Both the position numbers and the translations under genes were made by a program. This document shows, piece after piece, positions 471 to 63,914 of a DNA stretch of 64,000 bases (its first letter is position 1; the number at the start of each line of letters is the position of its first letter). The notes beneath the pieces are model-generated. The model saw only the letters and a program-made list of their open reading frames with translations. It was not told the origin of the DNA and made no database searches. Source of the stretch: Panopea generosa (taxonomy: Eukaryota; Mollusca; Bivalvia; Adapedonta; Hiatellidae); the NCBI GenBank assembly GCA_029582155.1, contig CM055908.1, forward strand, positions 21,871,103-21,935,102, read 5' to 3'.

Positions 471-21163
<20,693 letters not shown>

Positions 21164-34200: not shown

Positions 34201-37200
34201 GCTTGGTCTGATGTCATGGGTGCATGTCCAGCTTTGTCTGATGTCATGGGTACAAGTCCAGCTTGGTCTGATGTCATTGGTACAAGTCCAGCTTGGTCTG
34301 ATGTCATGGGTACAAGTCCATCTTGATCTGATGTCATGTGTACAAGTCCAGCTTGGTCTGATGTCATGGGTACAAGTCCAGCTTGGTCTGATGTCATGGG
34401 TACATGTCCAAGTTGGTCTGGTGTCATGGGTATAAGCCCAGCTTGGTCTGGTGTCATGGGTACAAGCCCAGCTTGATCTGGTGTCATGGGTACAAGTCCA
34501 ACTTGGTCTGGTGTCATTGGTACAAGCCCAGTTTGGGTCAGATGTCATGGGTACAAGCCCAGTTTGGGTCGGATGTCATGGGTACAAGCCCAGTTTGGTC
34601 TGATGTCATGTGTACAAGCCCAGCTTGGTCTGATGTCATGGGTACAAGTTCAGCTTGGTCTGATGTCATGAGTACGAGCCAAGCTTGGTCTGATGTCATG
34701 GGTACAAGTCCAGCTTGGTCTGATGTCATGGGTACAAGTCCAGCTTGGTCTGATGTCATGTGTACTATTCCACTTGGTCTGATGTCATGGATATGAGCCT
34801 AGCTTGGTCTGATGTCATGGGTACAAATCCAGCTTGATCTGATGTCATGAATATGAGACTAGCTTGGTCTGATGTCATGGATACAAATCCAGCTTGGTCT
34901 GATGTCATGGGTATGAGCCTAGCTTGGTCTGATGTCATGGGTAAGAGCCTAGCTTGTTCTGATGTCATAGGTATAAATCCAGCTTGGACTGATGTCATGG
35001 GTACAAATCCAACTTGGTCTGATGTCATTAGTATGAGCCTAACTTGGTATGATTTTATGGGTTCAGATCCAGTTTGGTCTGATGTCATGGGTATGTTTCC
35101 ATCTTGGTCTGATGTCATATGTATGAGCTTAGCTTGGTCTGATGTCATGAGAACAAATCCATCTTGGCCTGATGTCATGAGTATGAGCCTAGCGTGGTCT
35201 AATGTCATGGGTACAAATCCAGCTTGGTCTGATGTCATGGGTACAAATCCAACTTGGTCTGATGTCATGTGTATGAGCCTTTCTTAGTCTGATGTCATGG
35301 GTACAAATTCAGCTTGGTCTGATGTCATGAGTATGAGTCTGACTTGGTCTGATGTCATGGGTGTTAATCCAGCTTGGTCTGATGTCATGGGTACAAATCA
35401 AGCTTGGTCTGATGTAATGAGTATTCATCTAGCTTGGTCTGATTTCATGTGTTCAAATCCAGCTTGGTCTGATTTCATAGGTAAGAATCCAGCTTGGTAT
35501 GATTGTCATGGGTATGAAATTAGCTTGGTCTGTTGTCATGGGTTTGAGCTTAGCTTGGTCTGATGTCATGAATATGGGTCCAGCTTGGTCTTATATCATA
35601 TGTATGAGCCTAGCTTGGACTGATGTCATGAGTATGATCCTAGCTTGGTCTGATATCATGGGTACGAGGTCCAGCTTGTCTGATGTCATGGGTACGAGTC
35701 CGGCTTGGTCTGATGTCATAGGTAAAGTCCAGCTTGGTCTGATGTCATGTGTACAAGCCAAACATGGTGAGATGTCATATGTACAAGTACATCTTGATCA
35801 GATATATTGTGGTACAAGCCCAGCTTGGTCTGCTATCATGAGTATGAGCCTAGCTTGGTCTAATGTCATGGGTACAAATCCAGCATGGTCTGATGTCATG
35901 GGTACAAATCCAGCTTGGTCTGATGTCATGGATACAAGCCAAGCTTGGTCTAATGTCATGTGTACAAGTGCAGCTTGGTCTGATGTCATGGGTACAAGTC
36001 AAGCTTGATACGATGTCATGTGTACAAGTCAAGCTTGGTCTGATGTCATGGTAACAAACCAAGCTGGGTCTGATTTCTTGGGTAGAAGCCCAGCTTGATC
36101 TGATGTCATGGGTACAAGTCAAGCTTGGTCTGATGTCATGGGTACAAGCCCAGCTGGGTCTGATGTCATAGGTACAAGCCCAACTGGGTCTGATGTCATG
36201 GGTACAATTCCAGCTTGGTCTGATGTCATGTGTACAAGCCAAGCTTGGTCTGATGTCATGGGTACAAGTCCAGCTTGGTCTGGTGTCATGGGTACAAGCA
36301 CAGCTGGGTCTGATGTCATGGGTACAAGCTCAGCTTGGTCTGATGTCATGGGTACAAGTTAAGATTGGTCTGATGTCATGGGTACAATTCCAGCTTGGTC
36401 TGATGTCATGTGTACAAGCCAAGCTTGGTCTGATGTCATGGGTACAAGTCCAGCTTGGTCTGGTGTCATGGGTACAAGCACAGCTGGGTCTGATGTCATG
36501 GGTACAAGTTAAGATTGGTCTGATGTCATGGGTACAAGCCCAGCTGGGTATGATGTCTTGAGTACAAGCTCAGCTTGGTCTGATGTCATGGGTAGAAGCC
36601 AAGCTTGATCTGATGTCATGGGTACAAGTCAAGATGGGTCTGATGTCATGTGTACAAGCCCAGCTTGATCTGATGTCATGGGTACAAGTCCAGCTTGGTC
36701 TGGTGTCATGGGTACAAGCACAGCTGGGTCTGATGTCATGGGTACAAGCTCAGCTTGGTCTGATGTCATGGGTACAAGTTAAGATTGGTCTGATGTCATG
36801 GGTACAAGCCCAGCTGGGTATGATGTCTTGAGTACAAGCTCAGCTTGGTCTGATGTCATGGGTAGAAGCCAAGCTTGATCTGATGTCATGGGTACAAGTC
36901 AAGATGGGTCTGATGTCATGTGTACAAGCCCAGCTTGATCTGATGTCATGGGTACAAGTCAAGCTTGGTCTGATGTCATGGGTACAAGCCCAGCTTGATC
37001 TGATGTCATTGGTACAAGTCAAGCTTGGTCTGATGTCATGAGTACAAGCCCACTTTGATCTGATGTCATGGGTACAAGTCAAGCTTGGTCTGATGTCACG
37101 GGTACAAGCCCAGCTTGATCTGATGTCATTGGTGTAAGTCAAGCTTGATCTGATGTCATGGGTACAAGCCCAGCTGGGTCTGATGTCATGGGTACAAGCC

Positions 37201-38942
37201 CAGCTTGATCTGATGTCATGGGTTCCAGCCCAGCTGGGTCTGATGTCATGGGTACAAGTCAAGCTTGGTCTGATGTCATGGGTACAAGCCCAGCTGGGTC
37301 TGATGTCATTGGTACAAGCTCAGGTTGGTCTGATGTCATGGGTACAAGTTAAGATTGGTCTGATGTCATGAGTACAAGCCCAGCTGGGTCTGATGTCATG
37401 GGTACAAGTCCAGCTTGATCTGATGTCATGCGTACAAGTCAAGCTTGGTCTGATGTCATGGGTACAAGCCAAGCTTGGTCTGAAGTCTTTAGTTTGAGCC
37501 CAGGTTCATCCAATTATCTCTTGTTAAATGGTCTTCCAATTACTTGGGAAAAACAGTGGTCTTTCTCTATTGATAAAATGTTCTGCAATAATATAAACTT
37601 TAGTGTGCTTGAATGTTGTTCAGGGCTATTCAGATAAACTATATATATATAGCAGCTCTTAAGTAAATAGTTTTACTGATTTGATTGGACCACAAAATAA
37701 GATACTGTTATTTTCACCTAATAAATCATGTAAAATTCCAACTGTTTCACAAATACATTGAAATGTTTTCACTTGATTCTATTTTTCTCTTTGCTGAATC
37801 AACATCAATGTTCCAGTTGCCTTCCAAGTTGATACTATGAGTGCTGGTTTTATTTGTCTTATATCATTCATATTACAACAATTCCTTTATTTATAGGTCA
37901 CAGAAGTCTAAACCTACTTGACCTTGACATTTCCAGTACAAAGACTTCCAACAGTGGTGCATACAGTTTGTGTCAGTCCTTTACAACAGATTCTACTACA
38001 GGGTGCAGGAACTTGATCAAACTTCAGATATTTGGTACAATGATAAATGCAGCTGGTGCACTGTACCTTCTGCAGAATCTGCCAAAGTTACACTATCTTG
38101 GCTTCGATGATGTATGCAGTATTATAGAGATGGACACAAATGAAGGTCAAGGTCAGGCATACAAGCTGCGTAATCTGTTTTCTCATGGTCTAAAGGTACA
38201 TCCGGTGACTAAAGAAAGTTTAGAACTTTCGTGTTTGCTGTGTCCACACACCCAGGAAGCAAGATTTTATAGCAGTGCTGTATGTAACACAACTGTGGCT
38301 GCTATAAAACACTTGAAGGAAATCAAAAATCTTGGACTGGGAAATTGCGGAGATACAGTTTTGACGTTTGAAGCAGGTGTTCTGCCTGTTTTAATGGAAG
38401 TAGGTGGCCATCTCAGTGAACTGACACTTGCTGATGTGAATGACTTTGACCTAGTGTCTCTTGGACAACAGTGTAAGAATCTGAGAAACCTTTCTATCCT
38501 TATATCATCCATGGATGACAGTCCTCCTGCAGTTTTCACCCCACTGTCCACCTCTGACAGAAGAACACTGTTTGACAAGTTAGAGAACATCAGTATCGTT
38601 TATCCATTGGAAGAAATCCATTTTCAGATAAATGCACTTGCTGTCTTATTGAAGAATGCTAAGGGGTTAAAATCAATCACTATAAGATACATGCAAACCT
38701 TAACTACAGAGCTTTTATTGGATGTTTGGAATGATAATCCATTCTGTAAACTGGAGAAACTCAAGCTGGTTTCCTGTGATAATGTAGGTGCAGAGTTTAT
38801 TGACCTGTTGATTCAGGGAGAAAACAATCTGTCAGTGCTTGAGTTGCATAAATGTAGAAGTCTTTCATTCCAAGATAGCGAACGTTACAAAAAACTTGTA
38901 CGTAAACAAAATTTAGATTTGGAATTTATTTGGATATACTGA
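28099..38942 (+). CDS. Leucine-rich-repeat (RNI/FBXL-like) protein, four exons
   Basis: Exons 28099-28249, 30370-30539, 32019-32157 and 37897-38942 join in phase to a complete 501-residue protein, ATG to TGA. The basic N-terminus (MPRKKTAKTLKQCCFRKLAR) leads to LPRLLYVIGPFDNL and a helical segment that, in related LRR proteins, precedes the repeats. LRRs follow in RNI-like style: VTTLDLSKGGIAANN, KLVSLNLESLNSISARAL, LKTLNLKQTNCND, LNLLDLDISSTKTSNSG, LSELTLADVNDFDLVSL, LRNLSILISS, LEKLKLVSCDNVGAEFI, LSVLELHKCRSL. There is no signal peptide, TM segment or F-box I can recognise, so it is probably a cytosolic or nuclear adaptor. Intron 3 (32158-37896) is mostly one 30-bp minisatellite. The name is left open: no orthologue is recognised. 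Confidence 0.8.
29583..29895 (-). pseudogene. Decayed 3' end of a non-LTR retrotransposon
   Basis: Minus strand reads LLYKIVHELVAI, HRVSRYCHSMSFKRNHTRVNY, an in-frame stop, then KYSFFPLTKVQWNLLPAHVL and LQDLESLKLVINQLQ. The order 'LLYKI.H', 'KYSFFPRT..QWN.LP', 'SLESFK' is the usual C-terminal end of CR1/Jockey-type reverse transcriptase proteins. It lies in intron 1 of the LRR gene, without upstream RT domains. Confidence 0.7.
29935..30175. repeat. Tandem duplication, ~110-bp unit, about 2 copies
   Basis: 'AACATGACAAAGTGTTGTATG ... GGTTAAGGTCACATACAAG ... TTGCACATATGGAGGCTGTG' recurs at 29940 and 30045, and the start of a third copy occurs near 30145. Confidence 0.7.
30370..30539 (+). CDS. 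Exon 2, LRR protein
   Basis: Acceptor TTTTTTTTTTCAG, donor GTAAAT. Reads NEMIQCLINSLIEEKCLKRR then YFTVLMQMSVTTLDLSKGG and TRCP at the end. Phase 0 out. Confidence 0.78.
32019..32157 (+). CDS. Exon 3, LRR protein
   Basis: Acceptor CTGTTTCAG, donor GTAAGA. Two LRR units: KLVSLNLESLNSISARALC and LKTLNLKQTNCNDQVLSVI. Confidence 0.8.
32525..37490. repeat. Large minisatellite, 30-bp unit, ~165 copies
   Basis: Unit core GATGTCATGGGTACAAGTCC then AGCTTGGTCT. It fills intron 3 of the LRR gene. Higher-order structure is visible: 32891-33205 recurs at 33251-33565 (12 units, 360 bp), and 36583 recurs at 36853 (9 units, 270 bp). Single-base insertions near 34530 and 35505 shift the phase. Between ~34790 and 35660 a variant with GAGCCTAGCTTGG alternates with AATCCAGCTTGG, giving a 60-bp dimer. 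Long open frames on both strands only reflect the 30-bp period. Confidence 0.95.
37897..38942 (+). CDS. Exon 4 (terminal), LRR protein
   Basis: Acceptor TTTATTTATAG. Large 1,046-nt exon with 347 residues, carrying most LRRs, ending FQDSERYKKLVRKQNLDLEF then IWIY and TGA. The cysteine-rich centre CLLCPHTQEARFYSSAVC may be a non-repeat insert. Confidence 0.85.
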
Positions 38943-46147: not shown

Positions 46148-49100
46148 CTAAATTACAAAAAAATTATAATGATAACCATTTTGCAACTTTTATCACAATG
46201 GTAACATATTTGTAAGACAAAAAAAAGAAACTTAACTGTCATACTGTGAGAGTATGTGAAAAACAAATGTAATTTCAGGTGTTACACTAGCATATGGGTC
46301 ATTTCAGATATTACACTAGCATATGGGTCATTTCAGTCATTACACTAGCATATGGGTCATTTCAGATGTTACACTAGCATATGGGTCATTTCAGGTGTTA
46401 CACTAGCATATGGGTCATTTCAGATATTACACTAGCATATGGGTCATTTCAGACATTACACTAGCATATGGGTCATTTCAGACATTACACTAGCAATGGG
46501 TCATTTCAGATGTTACACTAGCATATGGGTCATTTCAGGTGTTACACTAGCATATGGGTCATTTCAGATATTACACTAGCATATGGGTCATTTCAGACAT
46601 TACACTAGCATATGGGTCATTTCAGATATTACACTAGCATATGGGTCATTTCAGGTGTTACACTAGCATATGGGTCATTTCAGGTGTTACACTAGCATAT
46701 GGGTCATTTCAGATATTACACTAGCATATGGGTCATTTCAGACATTACACTAGCATATGGGTCATTTCAGACATTACACTAGCATATGGGTCATTTCAGA
46801 CATTACACTAGCATATGGGTCATTTCAGGTGTTACACTAGCATATGGGTCATTTCAGATATTACACTAGCATATGGGTCATTTCAGATGTTACACTAGCA
46901 TATGGGTCATTTCAGATGTAACACTAGCATATGGGTCATTTCAGATGTTACACTAGCATATGGGTCGTTTCAAATATTACACTAGCATATGGGTAATTTC
47001 AGACGTTACACTAGCATATGGGTCATTTCAGATGTTACACTAGCATATGGGTCATTTCAGACGTTACACTAGCATATGGGTCATTTCAGATGTTAAACTA
47101 GCATATGGGTCATTTCAGATGTTACACTAGCATATGGGTCATTTCAGGTGTTACACTAGCACATGGGTCATTTCAGATATTACACTAGCATATGGGTCAT
47201 TTCAGACATTACACTAGCATATGGGTCATTTCAGACATTATGCTAGCATATAAAGTCATTTCAGACATAACACTAGCATATGGGTCATTTCAGATATTAC
47301 ACTAGCATATGGGTCATTTCAGATATTACACTAGCATATGGGTCATTTCAGATATTACACTAGCATATGGGTCATTTCAGATGTTACACTAGCATATGGG
47401 TCATTTCAGATATTACACTAGCATATGGGTCATTTCAGATATTACACTAGCATTATATGCACTATTATACTGGTTCACCTGTCATTCAGATAATATACAT
47501 GCATGACATTTATTTACATGTTATACTTGCAGAGCAGTTGATCTGACAATTGTATGATTGTCATGGTGGTACTTTTTAAATTTGTCGTTTTACTGCACTA
47601 GGTTGTAGTAGTAAAACAAATTTTTAAAGTAGGAAGATATTTTATTTATAAATTGTATAAAACACTGATGTACTTGACATCTATCCGACAGAATGTTTTA
47701 TTGCTTAATATGGTATACTGATGGTGGTATGGCGGGTTAACCTCTTTAAAATGACATAATTCACTGTTCAGTTATGCCAAAACATAACATTAACATTTAC
47801 AAAACGTATATAAGAGCAGGTTTAACACTAGCTGTAACCTGTATGTAAACAGCTGTAACATGTATGATGGACAGCTGTAACAAGGTTTGTTTGGAGTAAG
47901 ATGACACAGTACCAAAAATATCACAACTTCACTAACCATGAATCAGTTTGTAATTGGATTTGAACATTCCAGTTATAAAGTTTACTGAAATGAGAATTTT
48001 GGTCATTTCCCATGTACATGTATATACACTATCACTTTTTGTAAGGTTTACAGACAAAGAATTCCTTTGTTATATTAAAGTACTATCCTTAACTAAAAGG
48101 AAAATGTCCACAAAATAGGGACCAATGGGAACATTTTTATCACTTTGTGGCCAACTAAAGTTGCTGACTACCAGTTTCAGAATATAGCTTCCTTTACAAA
48201 ATGGTCTAAATACTTGAAAACATTAAAACAATTTTTTATTGACAAGAACATAACAAATAAACATTTAGTTAATTTCCCAGTTTGACATTTTCATTCAACT
48301 AGAAAAAGGCCGACTAACAAAATATATGCCCTGAAGGTCCCTTTTCTTTCTTCAGCCAATCAGAAGTCGCTTGTCAATAGTGGCACCTAACCTGAAAAGA
48401 TCTTGTAAATGTAAGCTTCTGTGGCAATAAGTGCCATCTATAACTTACCTAAACTTGTAGACCAGCACGGAGACCACAACTATGATGATAATCAGGACCA
48501 GACCAGCCATCCCTGCTGCCAGACCAATCACAGTCGTGTCGTTCATCTCTCTGCCCTTACTGTTTTGTGGTAGCGCCTGTGTTGTCGTCGTTAGCGGTGG
48601 ACAGGTTTCCGCTGCAATTACAAACATAGGTCATAATAACTAGTTCAGACAAAGGTATTTTTTGTATAATGGCAACAAAATTTATTATGATATGATTTGA
48701 ATGAGGTTATAACTAGCAATTGTGTATTGGCTGACAAAAAAACAGCTGACATAGTGCAAATTTCTACAATAATAACTCAATACTTACAGGGTCTGTAAAT
48801 AAATTCTCCTGTCAATGGATTACACACATAGCAAGGGTTTGCAGCACTCTCATCAAGTGAGGCGTAACAGACATTGTCTACCAAGCAACTTCCTTCCTGG
48901 AAAACCAAATCATAGGTTAATAAAAACAAACAATTCAATACAGAAGTAACATTAATAAACAAACAATTAATACAGAAGTAATGATAATAAACATATAATT
49001 AAATACAGAAGTGACAATAATAAATAAACAATTAAATACAGAAGTAATGATAATAAACAACCAAATACAGAAGTAATGATAATAAACATACAATTGAATA

Positions 49101-52100
49101 CAAAAGTAATGATAATATACATACAATTAAATACAGAAGTAATGATAATTAACATTGATAATTAACATACAATTAAATACAGAAGAAGTGATAATAAACA
49201 AACAATTAAATACAGAAGTAATGATAATAAACAAACAATTAAATACAGAAGAATGATAATAAACATACAATTAAATACAGAAGAAGCGATAATAAACAAA
49301 CAATTTAATAGAGAAGTAATGATAATAAACATACAATTAAATACAGAAGTAATGATAATAAACATACAATTAAATACAGAAGAATGATAATAAACATACA
49401 ATTGAATACAAAAGTAATGATAATAAACATATTATTAAATACAGAAGTAATGATAATAAACATACAATTAAATACAGAAGAAGTGATAATAAACAAACAA
49501 TTAAATACAGAAGTAATGATAATAAACAAACAATTAAATACAGAAGAATGATAATAAACATACCATTAAATACAGAAGAATCGATAATAAACAAACAATT
49601 AAATACAGAAGTAATGATAATAAACAAACAATTAAATACAGAAGTAATGATAATAAACATACAATTAAATACAGAAGAATGATAATAAACATACAATTGA
49701 ATACAAAAGTAATGATAATAAACATATTATTAAATACAGAAGTAATGATAATAAACATACAATTAAATACAGAAGAATGATAATAAACATACAATTAAAT
49801 ACAGAAGTAATGGTAATAAACATACAATTAAATACAGAAGTAATGATAATAAACATACAATTGAATACAGAAGTAATGATAATAAAGATACAATTAAATA
49901 CAGAAGTAATGATAATAAACATACAATTAAATACAGAAGTAATGATAGTAAACATACAATTGAATACAGAAGTAATGATAGTAAACATACAATTAAATAC
50001 AGAAGTAATGATAATAAACATACAATTGAATACAGAAGTAATGATAATAAACATACAATTGAATACAGAAGTAATGATAATAAACATATTATTAAATACA
50101 GAAATAATGATAATAAACATACAATTGAATACAGAAGTAATGATAATATACATACAATTAAAAACAGAAGTTACAATAATAAACAAACAATTAAATACAG
50201 AAGTTATGATAATAAACAAACAATTAAATACAGAAGTAATGATAGTAAACATACAATTGAATACAGAAGTAATGATAATAAACATATTATTAAATACAGA
50301 AATAATGATAATAAACATACAATTGAATACAGAAATAATGATAATATACATACAATTAAATACAGAAGTAGCGATAATAAACAAACAATTAAATACGGAA
50401 GTAATGATAATAAATAATAAAGGAACAATTAAATATGGAAGTAATGATAATAAACATACAATTAAATATGGAAGGTATGATAATAAACAAACAATTAAAT
50501 ACAGAAGTAATGATAATAAACAAACAATTAAATATGGAAGTAATGATAATAAACAAACAATTAAATACGGAAGTAATGATAATAAACATACAATTAAACA
50601 TGGAAGTAACGATAATAAAAAAACAATTAAACACAGAAGTAATGATTATAAACAAACAATTTAACACAGAAGTAACGATAATAAACAAACAATTAAATAC
50701 GAAAGTAACGATAATAAGCATTTAAACTAAGAGAAAATTGACCATAGTACTAGTTTTAAGTTGAAATTGAACAATACAGTTTAAGTCAAACCTGTTTTAA
50801 GCAGCCAGTCAAGAGAAGGAGTTAAAGTGGCCTCTGAAGAAAGGTTGTTGTTAAATACAGGTTAATTTACTCTGAAAGCATAGAACTGGGAAAAAGAAAA
50901 AAGACAGGTGGCTGCTTAATAGAGGTGCCGGCTTACACAGGTTTGACTGTATTTGCAAAGACCTTATTTAAGCTTTTTGTGTAAATATGAAGAGAAGACA
51001 TTATTTAAGTTTAAATTATATTTTCAACTCATCATTATAATTGTATGCAGGTATATAGACTATGGGGTACATACACTGTAATTTAGTATATCAATGACAA
51101 TTTTATATTTTATAGTTTGTACTGGAACATGTCTGTATTACCTTTCTCTTACACGTTCCATCATCCAATGTTTTAAGTTGACAAGTCCAGCAGATGGGGT
51201 TGTTGATGATGAGTAGATGCTGTGGACTCTGACTGGTCAACTGCCCATTGTTACTCACCGACACCAATACAGAGTGCAAAGGCAGGGTACCATTTTGTGA
51301 CACATCACAATTAATCTGATTAAATGTTTCTACTTCCGCTGCAACCGATGTCACATTGCCGGATTTAATGACTCCATTCTGAGTAATCTGCAAGAACATT
51401 TGTCAATTGTCAAAATAATTGATCAGACATTTACTAATTACAACAGATAGAAAAAATGTCAAGGTAAAAAAACATTGTATGCCCACCTTATACATCATGT
51501 CAAGGTCCAAGGTAAAAACATGGATATGAAAGTTTCAAGAAGTTTGGCCCCAAGATCATAAAAACAAAAATTAAAGCACAAACACTTGATTTAGCCAACA
51601 CTAATGTTAAATTGAGGTAGAAATTTTACAGGCATTTACAGTTATTTTGATACTGATACCAATCTTTCTTCGACACATACCTCCACGTTTTCAAAGTGAC
51701 AAAAAGCGCCATCTACAAAGTCATCCCCAAATACAGTGACTTCCAGACATGTGCCTGATATGGTTGATGTGCACAGATTGTCCTCTAGCTCTGACAAGGT
51801 TGGAGGATCATTGATGTTGAGTGAGCAGTCGTCAGAGGTGTAGTTGGTGTTGCAGATGCAGGTACCTACACGAAAACAAGATCAAAATAACATGTGGTCA
51901 TATTTATGTTGAATGGTTGTTCAGTTGAAGATTGTTTGTATTACAAATGCTGTCATCTATAGGCTATGAATTTAGCACAGTGATCAAGAACTTTTTAACG
52001 ACAGTAGCTATTACTGTAGTAACTATTAATACATACATGCATGTATCTATATAAATAAATCACATCTTTACGTCTAGTTATGTTGTTATGTGTACATACA

Positions 52101-55100
52101 TGCATGTATCTATATAAATAAATCACATCTTTACGTCTAGTTATGTTATGTGTACATGCATGTATCTATATAAATAAATCACATCTTTACGTCTTGTTAT
52201 GTTGTTATGTGTACATACATGCATGTATCTATATAAATTAATCACATCTTTACATCTTGTTATGTTGTTATGTGTACATACATGTATGTATCTATGTAAA
52301 TAAATCACATCTTTTTGTCTTGTTATGTGTACATACATGCATGTATCTATATAAATAAATCACATCTTTACGTCTTGTTATGTTGTTATGTGTACATACA
52401 TGCATGTATCTATATAAATAAATCACATCTTCACGTCTTGTTATGTGTACATACATGTATGTATCTATATAAATAAATCACATCTTTACGTCTTGTTATG
52501 TTGTTATGTGTAGATACATGTATGTATCTATATAAATAAATCACATCTTTATGTCTTGTTATGTTGTTATGTGTACATACATGTATGTATCTATATAAAT
52601 AAATCACATCTTCATGTCTTGTTATGTTGTTATGTGTACATACATGCATGTATCTATATAAATAAATCACATCTTCATGTCTTGTTATGTGTACATACAT
52701 GCATGTATCTATATAAATAAATCACAACCTTACGTCTTGTTATGTGTAGATACATGTATGTATCTATATAAATAAATCACATCTTTATGTCTTGTTATGT
52801 TGTTATGTGTACATACATGTATGTATCTATATAAATAAATCACATCTTCATGTCTTGTTATGTTGTTATGTGTACATACATGTATGTATCTATATAAATA
52901 AATCACATCTTCATGTCTTGTTATGTTGTTATGTGTACATATATGCATGTATCTATATAAATAAATCACATCTTCATGTCTTGTTATGTGTACATACATG
53001 CATGTATCTATATAAATAAATCACATCTTTACGTCTTGTTATGTGTAGATACATGTATGTATCTATATAAATAAATCACATCTTTATGTCTTGTTATGTT
53101 GTTATGTGTACATACATGCATGTATCTGTATATATAAATCACATCTGTATGTCTTGTTATGTGTACATACATGCATGTATCTGTATATATAAATAACATC
53201 TTCATGTCTTGTTATGTGAACATACATGCATGTATCTGTATATATAAATCACATCTGTATGTCTTGTTATGTGTACATACATGCATGTATCTGTATATAT
53301 AAATCACATCTGTATGTCTTGTTATGTGTACATACATGCATGTATCTGTATATATAAATAACATCTGTATGTCTTGTTATGTAAACATACATGCATGTAT
53401 CTGTATATATAAATAACATCTTTATGTCTTGTTATGTGTACATACATGCATGTATCTGTATATATAAATAACATCTGTATGTCTTGTTATGTGAACATAC
53501 ATGCATGTATCTGTATATATAAATAACATCTGTATGTCTTGTTATGTGAACATACATGCATGTATCTGTATATATAAATAACATCTGTATGTCTTGTTAT
53601 GTGAACATATATGCATGTATCTGTATATATAAATAACATCTGTATGTCTTGTTATGTTAACATATACAGACCCTAAACCGCTCAAGTACCCCAATTGCAC
53701 GCAAACGGAGTGCACTCAGAGCGTAAGCGGAGCGCGAGCGTAGCGCAGACGGAGCGCGAACGGAGCGCAGATTGAGCGCTGACGGAGCGGACAAGGACGG
53801 TAAGCAAACGCTGGATTTTGAATAATAAACGCACTCCTGAACGCATGAAATAGATCGAGTGCACTCAGACACGCTGAATGCACTCAGATACGCTGAGTGC
53901 ACTCAGAAGCGCTGTATACGCTAGACACAGTAAGATAACCGATAACAGAACTATTCGTGCGCTACTGAGTGCACTCGTTCATTCGGATATACTCTTTTTT
54001 TATTATTTGATCGTGAAGTCGATACTTAAAATCGAGATAAAAAATAAATTTTCTTTCACATAAATATAAACCATGTAGTTAATATAAATGTTTTACTGTA
54101 AAACGCATGATAAAACTTATTTTGGTCAACAGTTTATCAATTAAAACATAAATATCTATATTTAGCTGATCAATACAATAATGTTTAAAATACCTATTAT
54201 ACAATAGACGACACATCAATGGTTATCTACGGTTTCAAGGCTAATTTATTTGCATGTTTAAGCATGATTTGGTTTGCGCAACAAAAATATAAATAATTAT
54301 ATATTGTGTAAATAACAATTCGAAAAGATGTAATTTGCCGTGTTATTTCGATATAAATTAGCTATAGAACATACAAAACATGTACTTTATTTCGATTTAA
54401 GCGTATACTGCTCCAAATACAAAAATATCAAAGCATGCGTTTATCAAACAAAACATAGATATGCGTAAAATTATATGATTATGATTCTATTTGTTTGGGT
54501 ATTTCGGCAAAATAAAAATTACCAATTTTCAATTTAATTTGGACTTAAGTTTTATATTTTCCCCAAACATAGTTACACTGAGTTTGTGCTTAGTTGTAAA
54601 CAAATCTACGTAAACTGTTATATTGCAATTAAAGTGGAAACATTATACTCGTGCACATCTCATTAAAATAATAATAATAAATTAATTGTATTCTAAAATA
54701 TAAAGTGGGTCAGTAGTACAGCGGATAGGGTGCTGCTTCAGACGGCAGAGGTCGCGAGTTTGACCCAGGCTTTACCCGACCTCTCGAAACACAATTCAGT
54801 ACCAGATCTAATAAGGGAATGCACTGTAGAACGATATGCATTAGCTCCGAGCTTACTTGATAAAAACTAGCAAACGTAAATTTCTAGGTGACCTTTTTGA
54901 GGTTGTGATTTTATATTGACTAAAGAACAGCTTTTGATCATGAGGAAGGTTTAAATAAACAAAAAAGAACATGTATTCACTGCCTATAAAATAGTAAATA
55001 TATTGTTTTCCCGCTTTCCTACAAAATCGATACGCCTGATCACGTGCACGTAAGCACGTTACAATTAAGCCACTATAAAAGTTGTGAAAGGGGCAACAAG

Positions 55101-58100
55101 TAAGAAATGACAACAATGATTATAATAATAATAATAATAATAATAATAAAGAAGAAAAAATACTCAGATAATAATAATATGATAATATAATAATATAATA
55201 ATAAAGTAATATAGTTATAATAACAATAATATTAGTAATAATAGTAATAAATAACAATATAATAAAATATATAATAGATATTAATAATAATGATGATAAT
55301 AATAAAATTATAAAAAATCTGCATATTTTAGTATTGATTTTGACTATATATTTCTTATCCAATCACATGCCGCGGGTTAAATAAAGATTCATTCATCTGG
55401 CACAAATTATAATCAAAATGAAAATTACACACCGGCAGGGTTCTTTGTGACCAATGGACCGATAAATCACCAATTAACTATTTATTGACAAACATGTGGT
55501 TCTCACCATGGGTATCTGTTTTTATGATTGCCATGCAACTCTGCCTTCATTATAGTAACTAAATTGTTATATTAATTGTGAACGACTGACCAGATGCACA
55601 TACGCACGTATACAATATAAAAGCTGTAAACAAAACAATAAGTCAATATGTATATTATAATAATAGCTCCAATGATAATAATATTTCAAAAAAAATAAAA
55701 CAAATAATGAAAGTAAAAAATAATACAAATAAAATACTACATTTTTACAAGGAATTATTTAGAGACATGTCTTTAATTTTTATTAGTTTTAAAATTGTAC
55801 GATTGTTTTATTTTGTAAATTAACACTTCTGATCTGTTTTTTATACGAAATCGCTATGGCAGCTGTGTTAAAATGACAGCCCTGAATACACATCCCTTTA
55901 TACGTGTATGTCACACTTTCTACCATTCACTCAGAACTGGCGTGGGGTTTTCGGTTCGTTAATTTAATGATACTAACATCATGATATTTACATACTAAAG
56001 CGTTCTGAAACTTCGAATAACCAATATCTTAAATGATTTTTTTATTTGTGGTTAATTTGCTGGCAGTTTTTCTTTCTTATCTTTTCTTTTCAATCACATA
56101 ATGTTGGCTCAATTAAAATTCGTCCATCTGGCACGAATTACAATCAAAATGAAATCATACATATCTTCCGTGGTCAATAGACCGATAAGTCACCACTTTA
56201 GCATATAACATATGACACGGCTCTCACTGGCATGTGACATAACGTAATTAACACCACGGGTGTGTTGCTGCGTGTCATATAATTAGTGGTATAGCACAGT
56301 GGGTGTAGTTTCAAACAAGTTTAATATAGTTTGTCATTTTAAATAATATATTAACATAAAGCATACTATCAGTAAAAGAATAATTTGAAAATCCACTGAA
56401 AAAAGTTTATTGCAAGTATATTTATATACATAATGATAACGAAAATAATTATAAAAACTTAAAATATCAGAATATCTTTTTTTAAGTTTAGTGAAGCCAC
56501 ATTTGGACCCAAATCGAAAAAAAACACTGCAAGATTATTATTTTTCAAAAATCATTGATTATAATGTCGAATTGCATCACACAGATTATAATAAATTTTT
56601 CATCACCCATGCAGTGCATATTATTGATTATAAAGCTTATTTTAGTTTGAAAACTAACAAAACCAGTGATATATCCACATGTTTTTAAGTCACTGCTTAC
56701 ACTGAGCAGATTTATGGATTATCATAAGGCCAACGAGGTATCAACAGTATGGAATTATTAATTAAATCTAATTATAAATAACAATTTATTTAGTTTATGT
56801 TGATGATGTATATGTAAATTCTGTGAACAAACTTTATTGCTTTCCTGTAACAAACGGCTTACGGTATATCAAAGAAGATACTGACGCAAACAAATGTCGG
56901 TCTGGATAATAGAAGCCGGTATAACGTGCGATATTCTTTGATCACCCAGACCACTGATCACATATCAAAACATAGACCCTTCCGTTAAACATGCCTACTA
57001 TCGATACTTGTTCAACCTTTCGCCCGGCGGGTGACATAATCTGTAGACAAACAATCGGATTATGAATTAATTTACCTTGACTAAATCCCATGGATACATT
57101 TAATTGCTCCATTGGAACAGATTAAATTAAAAAGTCAATATAGAATCAGTTTAAATAGTTGAGATGTTGCGATTGGTTATGGGCCGGAAACCGAACTGAG
57201 CGAACTGAACGTTGAGTGAACGCTGAACGAAGCGAACGCTAGGAGGAGTATTAAATACAGCACTCAGCTATACAGCGCTCGTGAGCGAATACTTGCGTTT
57301 GTGAGTGCATTAAATTAACCGCGTTTAATCGAGTGCACGCAAACGGAGCGCGAACGGAGCGCGAACTAAGCGCGAACGGAGCGCGAACGGAGTGCAAACT
57401 GAGCGCAAACGGAGTGCAATTATGGGGTACTTGAGCGGTTTAGGGTCTGTATGCATGTATCTGTATATATAAATAACATCTGTATGTCTTGTTATGTGAA
57501 CATATATGCATGTATTTGTATATATAAATAACATCTGTATGTCTTGTTATGTGAACATATATGCATGTATCTGTATAAACAAGAAAATATCAGTGGAACT
57601 GATGGATGCTCCCCAAGTGAGTGTTTGACTCTGTACCATATTCCCTTTGTGCTGATTGCTACTCGGTTGAAAAATACCAAACTGCATAGCAGGAACAATA
57701 TGTGGCTCTGCACTTGACAGAACTTATCGGCAAATCATTGAAATGGAACAAAATGACAATATATGCATATCCTAGCTAGTTTTACAAAATTAAAACCAAA
57801 GGTTGTAGCGAAATAGCGTCATGAAGACAATATGCACATCTCCACTTGGTAATCATACATCCTAGCAAGTTTCATAAAATTCCAACCAGAGGCTGTAGAG
57901 AAAAAGAGCAGAGAAGAGTTTGGTCACAGACAGAATAACAGGGCCACAACTCTGTGAAAAATCATGGAACTGGAACACAAACAAAGCAAATTTCATAAAA
58001 TTCCATTTTGAGGTTGTAGAGAAATAGCATTGACAATAATTTGGTTACAGACTGAATGAAAGGGCCATAACTCCATGAAAATCATCGAACTGGAACACAA

Positions 58101-61100
58101 AGACAATATGCCAATCTCCACTTGGTAGTGATGCATCCTAGCAGGTTTCATAAAATTCCAACATGGGGCTGTAGAGAAATAGCGCAGACAAGAATTTGGC
58201 CATAGACAAAAACAAAGGGCAATAACTCTGTGAAAAATCATTGAACCGAAACATAAAGACAATATGCGCATCTGCACTTGGTAATGATGCATCTTAGCAA
58301 GTTATATAAAATTCCAACATTGGGTTGTAGAGAAATAGCATGAACAAGAATTTGGTCACAGACAGAATCAAAGAGCCACAACTCCGTGAAAAATCATCAA
58401 ACAGGAACACAAAAGATATTATGCACATCTGCACTTAGTAATGATGCATCCTAGCAAGTTTCATAAAATTCTGACCAGAGGTTGTAGAGAAATAGCCCAG
58501 ACAAGAATTTGGTCACATACTCAATTAAAGGGCCACAACTAGTGAAAAATCATCAAACAGGAACACAAAAGATATTATGCACATTTCCACTTGGTAGTGG
58601 TGCATCCTAGCAAGTTTCATAAAATTCTGACCAGAGGTTGTAGAGAAATAGCCCAGACAAGAATTTGGTCACATACTCAATTAAAGGGCCACAACTCCGT
58701 GAAAAATCATCAAACAGGAACACAAAAGATATTATGCACATCTGCACTTGGTAATGATGCATCCTAGCAAGTTTCATAAAATTCCGACCAGAGGTTGTAG
58801 AGAAATAGCCCAGACAAGAATTTGGTCACATACTCAATTAAAGGGCCACAACTCCGTGAAAAATCATCAAACAGGAACACAAAAGATATTATGCACATCT
58901 CCACTTGGTAGTGGTGCATCCTAGCAAGTTTCATAAAATTCCAACCAGAGGTTGTAGAGAAATAGCCCGGACCAAAATTTGATGATGCACGGAAAACAGA
59001 CAAAACGGCCACTATATGCTTTGGGGGAGCACAATAAATCACATCTTTATGTCTCGTTATGTGTCATGCAGATATGGATGGGAATCTCTTGTTACAAGTA
59101 CATACATATATAGATGGGAATCTCTTGTTACAAGTACATACAGATATGGATGGGAATATCTTGTTACAAGTACATACAGACATAGATGGGAATCTCTTGT
59201 TACAAGTACATACAGATATAGATGGGAATCTCTTGTTACAAGTACATACATATATAGATGGGAACCTCTTGTTACAAGTACATACAGATATAGATGGGAA
59301 TCTCTTGTTACAAGTACATACAGACATAGATGGGAATCTCTTGTTACAAGTACATACAGATATGGATGGGAATCTCTTGTTACAAGTACACACATATGTG
59401 GATGGGAATCTCTTGTTACAAGTACATACAGATATAGATGGGAATCTCTTGTTACAAGTACATACATATATAGATGGGAATCTCTTGTTACAAGTACATA
59501 CATATATAGATGGGAATCTCTTGTTACAAGTACATACAGATATAGATGGGAATCTCTTGTTACAAGTACACACATATGTGGATGGGAATCTCTTGTTACA
59601 AGTACATACATATATGGATGGGAATCTCTTGTTACAAGTACATACAGATATGGATACGAATCTCTTGTTACAAGTACATACATAAATGGATGGGAATCTC
59701 TTGTTACAAGTACATACAGATATGGATACGAATCTCTTGTTACAAGTACATACATATATGGATGAGAATCTCTTGTTACAAGTACATACATATGTGGATG
59801 GGAATCTCTTGTTACAAGTACATACAGATATAGATGGGAATCTCTTGTTACAAGTACATACATATATAGATGGGAATCTCTTGTTACAAGTCCATACAGA
59901 TATAGATGGGAATCTCTTGTTACAAGTACATACAGATATAGATGGGAATCTCTTGTTACAAGTACATACAGATATAGATGGGAATCTCTTGTTACAAGTA
60001 CATACAGATATGGATGGGAATCTCTTGTTACACGTACATACATATGTGGATGGGAATCTCTTGTTACAAGTACATACAGATAAAGATGGGAATCTCTTGT
60101 TACAAGTACATACATATAAAGATGGGAATCTCTTGTTACAAGTACATACAGATATGGATGGAAATCTCTTGTTACAAGTACATACAGATATGGATGGAAA
60201 TCTCTTGTTACAAGTACATACAGATATAGATGGGAATCTCTTGTTACAAGTACATACAGATATAGATGGGAATCTCTTGTTACAAGTACATACATATATG
60301 GATGGGAATCTCTTGTTACAAGTACATACAGATATGGATGGGAATCTCTTGTTACAAGTACATACATATATAGATGGGAATCTCTTGTTACAAGTACATA
60401 CAGATATAGATGGGAATCTCTTGTTACAAGTACATATAGATATAGATGGGAATCTCTTGTTACAAGTACATACATATGTGGATGGGAATCTCTTGTTACA
60501 AGTACATACAGATATGGATGGGAATCTCTTGTTACAAGTACATACATATGTGGATGGGAATCTCTTGTTACAAGTACATACAGATAAAGATGGGAATCTC
60601 TAGTTACAAGTACATACATATAAAGATGGGAATCTCTTTTACAAGTACATACAGATATAGATGGAAATCTCTTGTTACAAGTACATACAGATATGGATGG
60701 AAATCTCTTGTTACAAGTACATACAGATATAGATGGGAATCTCTTGTTACAAGTACATACAGATATAGATGGGAATCTCTTGTTACAAGTACATACATAT
60801 ATGGATGGGAATCTCTTGTTACAAGTACATACAGATATGGATGGAAATCTCTTGTTACAAGTACATACAGATATGGATACGAATCTCTTGTTACAAGTAC
60901 ATACATATGTGGATGAGAATCTCTTGTTACAAGTACATACATATGTGGATGGGAATCTCTTGTTACAAGTACATACAGATATAGATGGGAATCTCTTGTT
61001 ACAAGTACATACATATATAGATGGGAATCTCTTGTTACAAGTACATACAGATATAGATGGGAATCTCTTGTTACAAGTACATACATATATGGATGGGAAT

Positions 61101-63914
61101 CTCTTGTTACAAGTACATACATATATAGATGGGAATCTCTTGTTACAAGTACATACAGATATAGATGGGAATCTCTTGTTACAAGTACATACATATGTGG
61201 ATGGGAATCTCTTGTTACAAGTACATACATATATGGATGGGAATCTCTTGTTACAAGTACATACAGATATGGATATGAATCTCTTGTTACAAGTACATAC
61301 ATATATGGATGAGAATCTCTTGTTACAAGTACATACATATGTGGATGGGAATCTCTTGTTACAAGTACATACAGATATAGATGGGAATCTCTTGTTACAA
61401 GTACATACATATATAGATGGGAATCTCTTGTTACAAGTACATACAGATATAGATGGGAATCTCTTGTTACAAGTACATACATATATAGATGGGAACCTCT
61501 TGTTACAAGTACATACAGATATAGATGGGAACCTCTTGTTACAAGTACATACAGATATGGATGGGAATCTCTTGTTACAAGTACATACAGATATGGATGG
61601 AAATCTCTTGTTACAAGTACATACAGATATAGATGGGAATCTCTTGTTACAAGTACATACAGATATAGATTGAAATCTCTTGTTACAAGTGCATACATAT
61701 ATAGATGGGAATCTCTTGTTACAAGTACATACATATATGGATGGGAATCTCTTGTTACAAGTACATACAGATATAGATGGAAATCTCTTGTAACAAGTAC
61801 ATACAGATATGGATCGAAATCTCTTGTTACAAGTACATACAGATATGGATGGGAATCTCTTGTTACAAGTACATACAGATATGGATGGGATTCTCTTGTT
61901 ACAAGTACATACAGATATAGATGGGAATCTCTTGTTACAAGTACATACAGATATGGATGGAAATCTCTTGTTACAAGTACATACGGATATAGATGGGAAT
62001 CTCTTGTTACAAGTACATACATATATAGATGGGAACCTCTTGTTACAAGTACATACAGATATAGATGGGAACCTCTTGTTACAAGTACATACATATATAG
62101 ATGGGAACCTCTTGTTACAAGTACATACAGATATAGATGGGAACCTCTTGTTACAAGTACATACAGATATAGATGGGAATCTCTTGTTACAAGTACATAC
62201 AGATATAGATGGGAATCTCTTGTTACAAGTACATACATATATAGATGGGAACCTCTTGTTACAAGTACATACAGATATGGATGGGAATCTCTTGTTACAA
62301 GTACATACATATATGGATGGGAACCTCTTGTTACAAGTACATACAGATATAGATGGGAACCTCTTGTTACAAGTACATACAGATATAGATGGGAATCTCT
62401 TGTTACAAGTACATACAGATATAGATGGGAATCTCCTGTTACAAGTACATACAGATATAGATGGAAATCTCCTGTTACAAGAATATACAGCTAAACCATG
62501 TGTATTACACGTGATAAATACAAAATGTGATTTAATTAATAAATACTATTGAAATCTGCAATACATGAAATTAGCCCATATTATGATGCATCACCATTTG
62601 GACTCTCCTTTGAATACATTGCTTGAACCAGATTTATTTGGCAGTTCTATATAGTAAAAGCCAATAAATAAAAGAGTTAAATTAGCTCAAATTAGTTTTG
62701 TAGTTGATTATATTTGAGAAAAAAACTTCAACACTAATCATATGTTTGTCTCTTGTCCATTGAAAAATCCAAGTTTGTATATACTGAGATCATAACGTAC
62801 ATATCATCTATGAATTACTTACCATTTTCACAGACTCCCTGTCCTGAACATGAGCTGGGACACGACACACTTACAATATCATCAATGGCCGTTGTGTTGG
62901 TATCTGATTTGATGTTTTCGTAACATTGTTGAAACAAAGTATTTTTGGCTGTTTCAATAAACGGTGTCACAAGGTCATCTGTATACTGTTGAAAAAAAAA
63001 ATACAGACTGAAGCAATAATAATAAAACTGCCATGTATAAATGCTTATTGTTTCGGTTAAACTTATATATTTTCCACTGAAAGTTCTTACAACTTAGAAA
63101 TAACGCTTGAAGTCTTCCTGGGTAGAACTAGTATATGAAAACAGCATATGAAAACATTACATAAAAATTACATATGAATTCTGATTAAAGGAGAAAAATT
63201 ACTGGTATGGTTCAGAGATTTTTTTTTCTATTTCAAGTAATGGTAGCCATGATCAATTTGAGACAATCACTAGAAACACAAATCTTTTTTTGAGCAGTGG
63301 CTATTTTTATACTTTTTCCTAAATACTTAATGCAAAATTTGCAGCCATTTTACAGCTAGTTAGAATGTTTTACAACGAACAAACATAAAAACTTGAATGA
63401 GGTTGGCCCAAGGATCAAGCGCATGGAATTTGATATAAGGGGTTCCAGATGAAATTTTATAAGGGGTTCCAGATGAAATTTGATATAAGGGGTTCTGGAT
63501 GAAATTTGATATAAGGGGTTCTGGATGAAATTTGATATAAGGGGTTCTGGATGAAATTTGATATAAGGGGTTCCAGATGAAATTTGATATAAGGGGTTCC
63601 AGATGAAATTTGATATAAGGGGTTTCAGATGAAATTTGATATAAGGGGTTTCAGATGAAATTTGATATAAGGGGTTTCAGATGAAATTAAGTCTGCTACA
63701 GGAATATCCTGGATGAGGCAAATAGTTGCTAAAGGTAGAATTTATAACACACCATGATGTCTTTAACACAGTTATCGATTTGCTCAGCAATATCCGTAGG
63801 TAAGAGGCCTGTAGCTTCACATACACCGATGAAATCAGCACCAGTTAGGGTCCTGTTACAGGTCAATACTGCAGCATCCTCAGTTATCCCACTATCTGTA
63901 GGGAAGGTAACAAT
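45835..63914 (-). CDS. VWD/EGF/IPT-like single-pass membrane protein, 3' part of gene
   Basis: Minus-strand gene open at its 5' side. Exons in order: 63753-63914, 62823-62985, 51681-51865, 51142-51387, 48788-48896, 48449-48611, 45835-46147. They sum to 1,341 nt and join in phase to 446 residues and a TAG. Domains in order: cysteine-spaced segment like the C8 region after a VWD domain (LTCNRTLTGADFIGVC, IDNCVKDIM, FQQCYENI); EGF module (CPSSCSGQGVCENG + TCICNTNYTSDDC); IPT/TIG-like beta domain (GTCLEVTVFGDDFVDGAFC to VSVSNNGQLTS); a short six-cysteine type module (GSCLVDNVCYASLDESAANP, CYVCNP); a Thr-rich stalk; a TM helix (VIGLAAGMAGLVLIIIIVVV) and a basic stop-transfer (YKFRRQQSRK); then a ~100-residue tail. 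The layout resembles VWDE-like invertebrate cell-surface proteins. The ligand is unknown. The structure is firm; the family name is inferred. Confidence 0.78.
46277..47455. repeat. Minisatellite, 29-bp unit, ~41 copies
   Basis: Unit TTACACTAGCATATGGGTCA plus TTTCAGATA. Positions 27-29 and the next base vary among GATA, GACA, GATG and GGTG in runs, giving a readable variant code along the array. It lies in the last intron of the membrane protein gene. Confidence 0.95.
47456..48440. other. Intron, nothing recognised
   Basis: AT-rich unique-looking sequence. A short repeat of 'AGCTGTAACATGTATG' occurs near 47830-47880. Confidence 0.4.
48449..48611 (-). CDS. Exon: stalk and transmembrane helix
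   Basis: Acceptor TGTAATTGCAG, donor GTAAGT. Reads ETCPPLTTTTQALPQNSKG, then REMNDTTVIGLAAGMAGLV and LIIIIVVVSVLVYKF. Confidence 0.83.
48788..48896 (-). CDS. Exon: short cysteine module
   Basis: Acceptor GGTTTTCCAG, donor GTAAGT. Reads EGSCLVDNVCYASLDESAAN then PCYVCNPLTGEFIYRP. The pattern SC-x4-VCY..NPC-x2-C recurs in large invertebrate extracellular proteins with VWD/EGF domains. Confidence 0.8.
48915..50715. repeat. Minisatellite, 33-bp unit, ~54 copies
   Basis: Unit AATACAGAAGTAATGATAAT plus AAACATACAATTA, with 3-bp-shorter and edge-decayed copies. It is in the intron between exons 51142 and 48896. It begins ~20 bp from the acceptor of exon 48788-48896, so it reaches into the branch-point region. 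Open frames of up to 295 codons are a by-product of the 33-bp period. Confidence 0.94.
50777..50949. mobile_element. Mariner/Tigger-type MITE, 173 bp, TA target
   Basis: Left CAGTTTAAGTCAAACCTG, right ACAGGTTTGACTG, flanked by TA on both sides (50775-50776 and 50950-50951). The inner ends TTTTAAGCAGCCAG and GTGGCTGCTTAATAG are also complementary. No coding. It sits just beside the 33-bp array. Confidence 0.75.
51142..51387 (-). CDS. Exon: IPT/TIG-like beta domain
   Basis: Acceptor TTCTTGCAG, donor GTAATA. 82 codons: ITQNGVIKSGNVTSVAAEVE, FNQINCDVSQNGTLPLHSVL, VSVSNNGQLTSQSPQHLLII, then CWTCQLKTLDDGTCKRK. Confidence 0.8.
51681..51865 (-). CDS. Exon: second half of EGF module and start of IPT/TIG-like domain
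   Basis: Acceptor TTCGTGTAG, donor GTATGT. Reads TCICNTNYTSDDCSLNIND, then PPTLSELEDNLC and GTCLEVTVFGDDFVDGAFC. Confidence 0.8.
52010..53666. repeat. Minisatellite, 55- and 63-bp units (left part)
   Basis: Unit core ACATACATGCATGTATCTAT, ATAAATAAATCACATCTTTA, CGTCTTGTTATGTGT. The 63-bp form has an extra TGTTGTTA. From about 53110 a second variant (CTGTATATATAAATAACATC) forms its own block. ACATACATGCATGTAT is itself palindromic. The array is broken by two insertions and resumes at 57450 and 59034. Confidence 0.93.
53690..53960. repeat. Left subterminal repeats of the 3.8-kb element
   Basis: About eight diverged copies of GGAGCGCGAAC-like 11-mers, then GAGTGCACTCAGA-like repeats (GAGTGCACTC is palindromic) near 53860-53970. 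Strong GC shift against the AT-rich surroundings. Confidence 0.8.
54705..54790 (+). ncRNA. tRNA-like block (SINE head or tRNA pseudogene)
   Basis: GTGGGTCAGTAGTACAGCGG resembles an A box arm, GCTGCTTCAGACGGCAG an anticodon arm (loop CTTCAGA), and GGTCGCGAGTTTGACCC a T arm with B box. The acceptor stem does not pair well, so a working tRNA is unlikely. It lies inside the 3.8-kb element. Confidence 0.45.
55020..56240. repeat. Internal tandem duplication of ~600-700 bp inside the 3.8-kb element
   Basis: 55020-55515 and 55590-56240 share, in the same order, GCACGTAAGCACG / GCACATACGCACG, a TATAAAAG box-like motif, (AAT)n, then TCTGGCACAAATTATAATC and GTGACCAATGGACCGATAA. The copies are strongly diverged. 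Confidence 0.6.
55120..55360. repeat. (AAT)n-type low-complexity tract
   Basis: TAATAATAATAATAATAATAAT and degenerate derivatives, part of the duplicated core of the 3.8-kb element. Confidence 0.85.
57185..57420. repeat. Right subterminal repeats of the 3.8-kb element
   Basis: ACGGAGCGCGAACGGAGCGC and variants repeat about seven times (57345-57420), in the same orientation as at the left end. They are preceded by looser GAACTGAGCGAACTGAACG repeats. Confidence 0.8.
57450..57579. repeat. 55-bp minisatellite, middle part
   Basis: Continuation of the 52010-53666 array after the 3.8-kb element (ATGCATGTATCTGTATAT), about 2.3 units, cut by the next insertion. Confidence 0.9.
57580..59033. mobile_element. 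Element made of ~155-bp tandem repeats, inserted in the 55-bp array
   Basis: Left end has GGATGCTCCCC and right end GGGGGAGCAC, a short inverted pair. Seven or so units of 150-160 bp repeat CATCCTAGCAAGTTTCATAA, GAGGTTGTAGAGAAATAGC, AATTTGGTCACA and GGGCCACAACTCCGTGAAAA (phrases at 57848, 58131, 58290, 58447, 58607, 58757, 58916). Both flanks are the 55/63-bp satellite. The build recalls the bivalve 'pearl' family (tandem ~160-bp core next to a microsatellite); I cannot confirm membership. Target duplication ambiguous (ATAAA-like). Confidence 0.7.
59034..59065. repeat. 55/63-bp minisatellite, last fragment
   Basis: ATAAATCACATCTTTATGTC and TCGTTATGTGT close the interrupted array; the 36-bp satellite starts directly after it. 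Confidence 0.8.
59070..62495. repeat. Large minisatellite, 36-bp unit, ~95 copies
   Basis: Unit CAGATATAGATGGGAATCTC plus TTGTTACAAGTACATA. Variants GATATAGAT, TATATAGAT, TATGTGGAT, GATATGGAT and AACCTC are distributed in repeated orders. Very homogeneous. Open in several frames on both strands (up to 568 codons on the minus strand) only because 36 is divisible by 3. It lies in the 11-kb intron of the membrane protein gene. Confidence 0.96.
62500..62820. other. Intron, nothing recognised
   Basis: AT-rich sequence between the 36-bp array and the donor of the exon at 62823-62985. Confidence 0.4.
62823..62985 (-). CDS. Exon: end of C8-like segment and first half of EGF module
   Basis: Acceptor TTTTTTCAACAG, donor GTAAGT. 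Reads YTDDLVTPFIETAKNTLFQ, then DIVSVSCPSSCSGQGVCEN. The next intron is ~11 kb and holds arrays and mobile elements. Confidence 0.78.
63432..63690. repeat. Minisatellite, 26-bp unit, ~10 copies
   Basis: Unit GAAATTTGATATAAGGGGTT plus CCAGAT. Variants CCAG, CTGG and TCAG form consecutive blocks. It lies in the intron between exons 63753 and 62985. Confidence 0.92.
63753..63914 (-). CDS. Exon: VWD/C8-like segment
   Basis: Acceptor CTACTTGCAG, donor GTGTGT. Reads IVTFPTDSGITEDAAVLTC, then NRTLTGADFIGVCEATGLL and IAEQIDNCVKDIM. A 162-nt symmetric exon (54 codons). Confidence 0.75.

What the first reader, a model, noticed from the sequence alone, without database searches (positions are those of the whole stretch)
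53667..57449. 3.8-kb TA-flanked TIR element with direct GC-rich subterminal arrays and no transposase
The borders are exact: taking out 53667-57449 and one TA restores the 55-bp satellite unit. The ends are inverted for 26-36 bp, yet the 11-bp GGAGCGCGAAC-type arrays just inside run in the same direction at both ends, which is unusual for a TIR element. The core is AT-rich and seems non-coding, and it is long for a mariner-type MITE. It may be a family not described before, or a non-autonomous partner of a larger transposon.
Basis: partly seen in the sequence, partly recalled or inferred. Interest (0 to 1): 0.8.

Follow-up and report, generated by a model that had tools for sequence, protein, structure and literature searches.

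The report
Abundant transposase-free 3.8-kb jumping element
The stretch is one copy of a mobile DNA family with hundreds of similar copies in this genome; it seems to code for no protein, so another, still unidentified element probably moves it, and its two ends carry short repeats that point the same way.

Summary
53667-57449 (3,783 bp) has a perfect 26-bp terminal inverted repeat (TIR), is flanked by TA, and removing it with one TA restores the 55-bp satellite phase exactly. The host genome is held: the TIR occurs 1,770 times (875 + 895, up to 2 mismatches; reversed-pattern control 0), roughly 885 elements. Twenty copies fetched by their exact left end all have both ends and TA on the far side; 17 of 20 are 3.5-3.9 kb and copies are about 95-99.8% identical. 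The window copy, the 21-copy consensus and a diverged copy show no transposase. The 11-bp arrays run mainly in one direction at both ends in 21 of 21 copies, but motifs further in are palindromic or inverted. Best explanation: a recently active, non-autonomous cut-and-paste transposon mobilised in trans by a TA-targeting transposase. The superfamily is not shown; IS630/Tc1/mariner is likeliest, but six pogo loci lacked these ends. Ten of 68 listed elements remain unread.

The parts
53665..53666 (.). TA target-site duplication, left copy
   Evidence: sequence and satellite phase
53667..53692 (+). left terminal inverted repeat, 26 bp
   Evidence: 26/26 match to right end; exact in 21 of 21 copies, which were selected by an exact left end
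53700..53789 (+). left GC-rich 11-bp array, GGAGCGC-type, + orientation
   Evidence: tandem repeat finder; motif map
53853..53980 (.). left inner motifs: 19-bp repeats with palindromic GAGTGCACTC and CGCTGTATA
53981..57184 (.). AT-rich core without detected coding region
   Evidence: no ORF over 88 aa; no Pfam match in six frames
54705..54790 (+). tRNA-like stretch inside the core (A-box- and B-box-like by recall); present in the family consensus
   Evidence: sequence and consensus; ARAGORN calls no tRNA in the window
55347..56207 (+). imperfect internal direct duplication, offset about 730 bp (55347-55484 versus 56078-56207)
   Evidence: the repeat finder families D6 and D8
57185..57202 (+). 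outlying degenerate copy of the array motif, + orientation
   Evidence: the repeat finder family D5
57269..57311 (-). right inner motifs, inverted relative to 53877-53918
   Evidence: inverted pairs I13 and I14; alignment
57334..57414 (+). right GC-rich 11-bp array, same direction as the left array
57424..57449 (-). right terminal inverted repeat, 26 bp
   Evidence: exact in 13 of 21 copies
57450..57451 (.). TA target-site duplication, right copy
52030..57577 (.). host 55-bp satellite array that received the insertion (52030-53658 and 57450-57577, split by the element)

Best explanation
It is a non-autonomous cut-and-paste DNA transposon, one of roughly 885 elements of a single family in this genome. 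A transposase made elsewhere recognises the 26-bp TIR, probably helped by binding to the GC-rich subterminal arrays; it excises the element and joins it to a TA, which is duplicated. Shown: borders, TA duplication, number of ends in the genome, near-identity of copies, absence of a detectable transposase in the window copy, the consensus and L035, polarity of the outer arrays. Inferred: that mobilisation is in trans, that the arrays are protein-binding sites, and that the transposase belongs to IS630/Tc1/mariner (about 0.55; other TA-duplicating groups such as PHISTA- or ESTA/Mirage-like make up most of the rest). The same-direction arrays may matter little mechanically, because their core GAGYGC is half of a palindrome; one array may simply have been copied to the other end in direct orientation.
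For: 1,770 TIR matches with control 0. 20 of 20 copies read have two ends at the same bases and TA on the right (the left TA was part of the query), with differing 12-bp flanks. 24 of 25 further far ends sampled are followed by TA. Copies about 95-99.8% identical, closest pair 0.22% apart on different contigs, so recent. Longest open frame of the 21-copy consensus 138 aa, largely low-complexity; no Pfam domain in six frames of the window copy. Diverged copies L035 and L037 keep TA and array polarity. Exact empty site in the satellite.
Against: No transposase source was found. 10 of 68 listed elements on contig C1 have no far end where expected and could not be read. Individual copies other than the window copy and L035 were not scanned for domains. 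Direct arrays do not fit the mirrored binding sites usual for TIR elements (recalled). The 6 pogo loci tested do not show these ends. PF13358 and PF13359 searches did not complete.
Confidence: 0.88

Rival explanations
1. Compatible with the best explanation, but specific about the partner: the family is the deleted form of a larger transposon with the same ends, whose transposase-bearing copy is rare in this genome.
For: Subfamily copy L035 shares ends and flanking core but has an unrelated middle (consensus 1131-2130), so cores can differ between elements with common ends. Ten listed ends lack the usual far end.
Against: 32 of 32 adjacent exact TIR pairs under 40 kb in the listed sample span 2.1-4.04 kb. 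The exact TIR showed no third kind of subterminal sequence among the 15 hits of the context search, all single-base variants of the known left or right ends (that pattern covers only contexts with C or G at position 2 and not C at position 9).
Confidence: 0.4
2. Compatible with the best explanation, but specific about the partner: it shares only a short part of the TIR and is a separate TA-targeting family (IS630/Tc1/mariner, PHISTA-like or ESTA/Mirage-like).
For: TA duplication is general in IS630/Tc1/mariner (passages of PMC10045372 and PMC7325037), and is also reported for fungal PHISTA and ESTA (passages of PMC12730594). The genome holds many pogo transposase matches (152).
Against: 6 pogo loci read (of 152 matches), each 5.0-5.5 kb, do not carry the TIR as a pair; the best single matches have 9 of 26 mismatches. 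The pattern search for short shared TIRs did not complete (last try).
Confidence: 0.5
3. The inverted ends are chance flanks of a segmental duplication or part of the satellite.
For: It sits inside a satellite array.
Against: Twenty copies with differing flanks, the same borders and TA; satellite phase restored exactly.
Confidence: 0.01

Closest known systems
Non-autonomous IS630/Tc1/mariner (ITm) elements
   Same: TA duplication, TIR of about 20-30 bp, no transposase found, many similar copies.
   Different: About 3.8 kb of core, against small MITEs (recalled); GC-rich direct arrays at both ends; no related transposase shown.
PHISTA and ESTA transposons (fungal groups with TA duplications, passages of PMC12730594)
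   Same: TA duplication.
   Different: Reported there from fungi, with transposases; no sequence link was tested here.
ISL2EU (PHIS superfamily, passages of PMC4482050)
   Same: Two-base AT-rich duplication.
   Different: ISL2EU duplicates AT within A|AT|T; here the duplication is TA and the bases next to it show no such preference in 21 sites.
CACTA/EnSpm elements with subterminal motif arrays (recalled)
   Same: Arrays of short GC-rich motifs next to the TIR.
   Different: CACTA termini and 3-bp duplication (recalled) are absent.
Helentron non-autonomous elements carrying satellite-like repeats in oyster (title and abstract start of PMC7492417)
   Same: Dispersed non-autonomous element with short tandem repeats inside.
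   Different: Here a long TIR and a target-site duplication are present.

Membership tests
Non-autonomous TIR (cut-and-paste) DNA transposon | terminal inverted repeats shared by copies | tested here: met
   20 of 20 copies read; 1,770 genome matches
Non-autonomous TIR (cut-and-paste) DNA transposon | fixed-length target-site duplication | tested here: met
   TA on the far side 20 of 20 and 24 of 25; exact empty site
Non-autonomous TIR (cut-and-paste) DNA transposon | no transposase encoded | tested here: met
   window copy and L035 in six frames against Pfam; open frames of the 21-copy consensus. Other single copies not scanned; 10 listed elements unread
Non-autonomous TIR (cut-and-paste) DNA transposon | excision and reinsertion observed | not testable with these tools
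   needs cells or population data
IS630/Tc1/mariner | TA target-site duplication | tested here: met
IS630/Tc1/mariner | DDE/D transposase of this superfamily with the same TIR | tested here: inconclusive
   6 pogo loci without the TIR pair; PF13358 not answered
ISL2EU | AT duplication within A|AT|T | tested here: not met
   21 sites: duplication is TA; no A-before or T-after preference
CACTA/EnSpm | CACTA-type termini and 3-bp duplication (recalled) | tested here: not met
   termini CAGACC; only TA duplicated at the 20 sites written out
MITE | small size (under about 1 kb, recalled) | tested here: not met
   20 copies 2.5-3.9 kb, 17 of them 3.5-3.9 kb
Helitron/Helentron | no TIR and no target-site duplication (recalled) | tested here: not met
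   both present

The most novel reading that the evidence does not exclude
A TIR transposon whose two ends are marked by directional arrays read the same way, so that end pairing depends on a polar protein-DNA complex rather than a mirror-symmetric one, driven by a transposase lineage not yet linked to such ends.
Probability: 0.15. Interest if true: 0.6.

Novelty: new member of a known kind. Interest (0 to 1): 0.35.

Why it matters
The family makes up roughly 3 Mb of this 1.47-Gb genome (estimate: about 885 elements at about 3.8 kb) and moved recently. If no copy codes for its own enzyme, it shows that a non-coding element several kilobases long can be kept near full size by trans mobilisation. 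Its same-direction end arrays offer a clean test of whether subterminal binding sites must be mirrored for cut-and-paste transposition.

Tried and rejected
Rejected: segmental duplication; Helitron type (has TIR and duplication); ISL2EU; pogo loci L029-L034 as partners, within the 5.0-5.5 kb read at each (L032 and L034 hold single TIR-like matches with 9 of 26 mismatches, L029 and L034 single 14-base matches with up to 3 mismatches, none as an inverted pair). IMG/VR scan for the exact TIR: 0 matches. Rfam at gathering threshold: 0 matches in the window. Pfam on 8 short ORFs of the region: 0. Paper searches for the TIR 13-mer (1 paper, unrelated by its title and abstract start) and for families or end architecture gave listings; none of the titles and abstract starts that I saw describes this family. 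Of papers opened I saw passages only: PMC4482050, PMC10045372, PMC12730594, PMC10294476, PMC7325037.

Conservation as evidence for function of the ends: mixed. In L035, inner ends differ 6.5% against 13.6% in the shared core (p 8e-5), but the arrays do not stand out (11.3%, p 0.44), and its TIRs were selected to be exact, so 0 of 52 there proves nothing. In L037, ends 3.8% and core 3.7%: no difference. Low variability of TIR and arrays among the 21 copies is partly selection, since the query was the left 75 bp.

Never answered (server busy): pattern TACAGACCCTAAACC with a changed continuation; PF13359; PF13358; core query; L035 end query; tRNA-like core pattern. Answered after repeats: left-end query (5, then 13), TIR pattern (21, 23, 25, 28, 30, 33, 35, 37, 39, 42, 45, 47, 51, 54, 58, 60, then 62), context pattern (66, 68, 70, then 73), PF03184 (78, then 84).

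Full report
Observation. The window element 53667-57449 is 3,783 bp. Its ends match as inverted repeats over 26 of 26 bases, then 8 of 8 after a 2-bp gap. TA stands on each side. In the interrupted satellite the units next to it start every 55 bp; across the element the step is 3,840, which is 55 + 3,785, so removal of the element and one TA restores the phase exactly.

The genome. A 75-bp left-end query gave 1,020 first-look candidates; 40 were scored and 40 of 40 are 100% identical. The 28-base TIR with TA, with up to 2 mismatches, occurs 875 times forward and 895 times reverse; the reversed control pattern 0 times. That is roughly 885 elements if every element has two recognisable ends.

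Copies. I fetched 20 of those 40 hits as 10-kb stretches. 20 of 20 have both ends, length 2,508-3,898 bp, 17 of them 3,513-3,898; 20 of 20 carry TA on the right (the left TA was in the query). The left TIR is exact in 21 of 21 including the window copy (selected), the right TIR in 13 of 21. Copies are about 95-99.8% identical; the nearest pair (L015, L021, on different contigs) differs by 0.22%; several subfamilies are visible. The 21-copy consensus is 3,768 bp, and its longest open frame is 138 aa, low-complexity over much of its length. Single copies other than the window copy and L035 were not scanned for domains.

Sizes. Among the 100 listed exact ends (contig C1, 1.3-57.7 Mb), 32 adjacent facing pairs closer than 40 kb all span 2,144-4,036 bp, 30 of them over 3.5 kb. 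Of the 36 other ends, one is L028 (3,124 bp); for the remaining 35 I read the 0.9 kb where the far end should lie: 25 have it (0-3 mismatches, about 3,430-3,950 bp away; 24 of 25 followed by TA) and 10 have neither the far end nor family sequence there. So 58 of 68 listed elements are accounted for as 2.1-4.04 kb and 10 are open.

Variation. L037, a copy beside L024 that BLAST aligns to the consensus at about 92%, and L035, a 4,036-bp member of a more diverged subfamily (83-87% in the parts that align), both keep TA and the same array polarity. L035's TIRs are exact, but it came from the exact-TIR list. L035 has an unrelated middle in place of consensus 1131-2130, so cores differ between elements with common ends. 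Its six frames give no transposase domain; the only Pfam match is a sub-threshold one (E 0.0088, below the curated cut-off) to an adhesin insertion domain.

End anatomy. ACGGAG stands 4 times at the left and 5 times at the right, all on the + strand, and never on the - strand (window copy). In the 124 bases inside each TIR the 21 copies show GAGYGC 4-6 times against 1 reverse at the left, and 4-8 against 0 at the right, except L022 with 4 against 2. Further in, however, GAGYGCRCTC is palindromic and CGCTGTATA is mirrored at the two ends; the inverted alignment of inner ends scores 34 against a maximum of 30 in 300 shuffles, a modest excess.

Mechanism. Shared TIRs, TA duplication and hundreds of scattered similar copies mean cut-and-paste transposition; absence of a transposase means the enzyme comes in trans. 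Both are inference from established knowledge of such elements. TA duplication fits IS630/Tc1/mariner (passages) but is also reported for PHISTA and ESTA (passages), so the superfamily stays open. A pogo (PF03184) search gave 152 matches, with 150 of 281 candidates scored; six loci read as 5.0-5.5 kb stretches (L029-L034) show no such TIR pair, which does not exclude ends lying outside the stretch. PF13358 and PF13359 searches did not complete.

Context search. The exact 26-mer followed by C or G at the second base gave 15 hits, 12 one-base variants of the left context and 3 of the right context. So no third kind of end appeared, within the limits of that pattern.

Verdict. A genuine, recently active, abundant DNA transposon family, non-autonomous as far as tested. 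It is a new member of a known kind as far as could be tested; unusual are its size without a gene and its same-direction outer arrays.

Noticed in passing
window 9964-13212 (-): 1,082-aa open frame with reverse transcriptase, RNase H and endonuclease domains: a non-LTR retrotransposon by its domains.
   Followed up: partly
window 32528-37487, 46272-47453, 48920-50721, 59065-62490: Long tandem arrays of 30-, 29-, 33- and 36-bp units; together with the 55-bp array a large part of the second half of the window is satellite.
   Followed up: no
window 836-26317: 13 pairs of inverted repeats of 67-193 nt at 84-96% complementarity, perhaps one or more other short elements.
   Followed up: no
L029 1575-5442: A pogo-type transposon with a 67-bp TIR and a 679-aa open frame; frames of 678-681 aa occur at 6 places, so it may be recently active.
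   Followed up: partly
window 54705-54790: tRNA-like stretch (by recall of the boxes) inside the element, part of the family consensus; possibly an old SINE captured by the founder.
   Followed up: partly
genome contig C1:43826975-43834212: Two facing TIR pairs of the family's size lie about 76 bp apart, probably two neighbouring insertions.
   Followed up: no
window 57864-58981: Tandem 121/157-bp repeats with AGGGCCATAACTC-like motifs that I recall from mollusc genomes; the host was not identified by any search.
   Followed up: no
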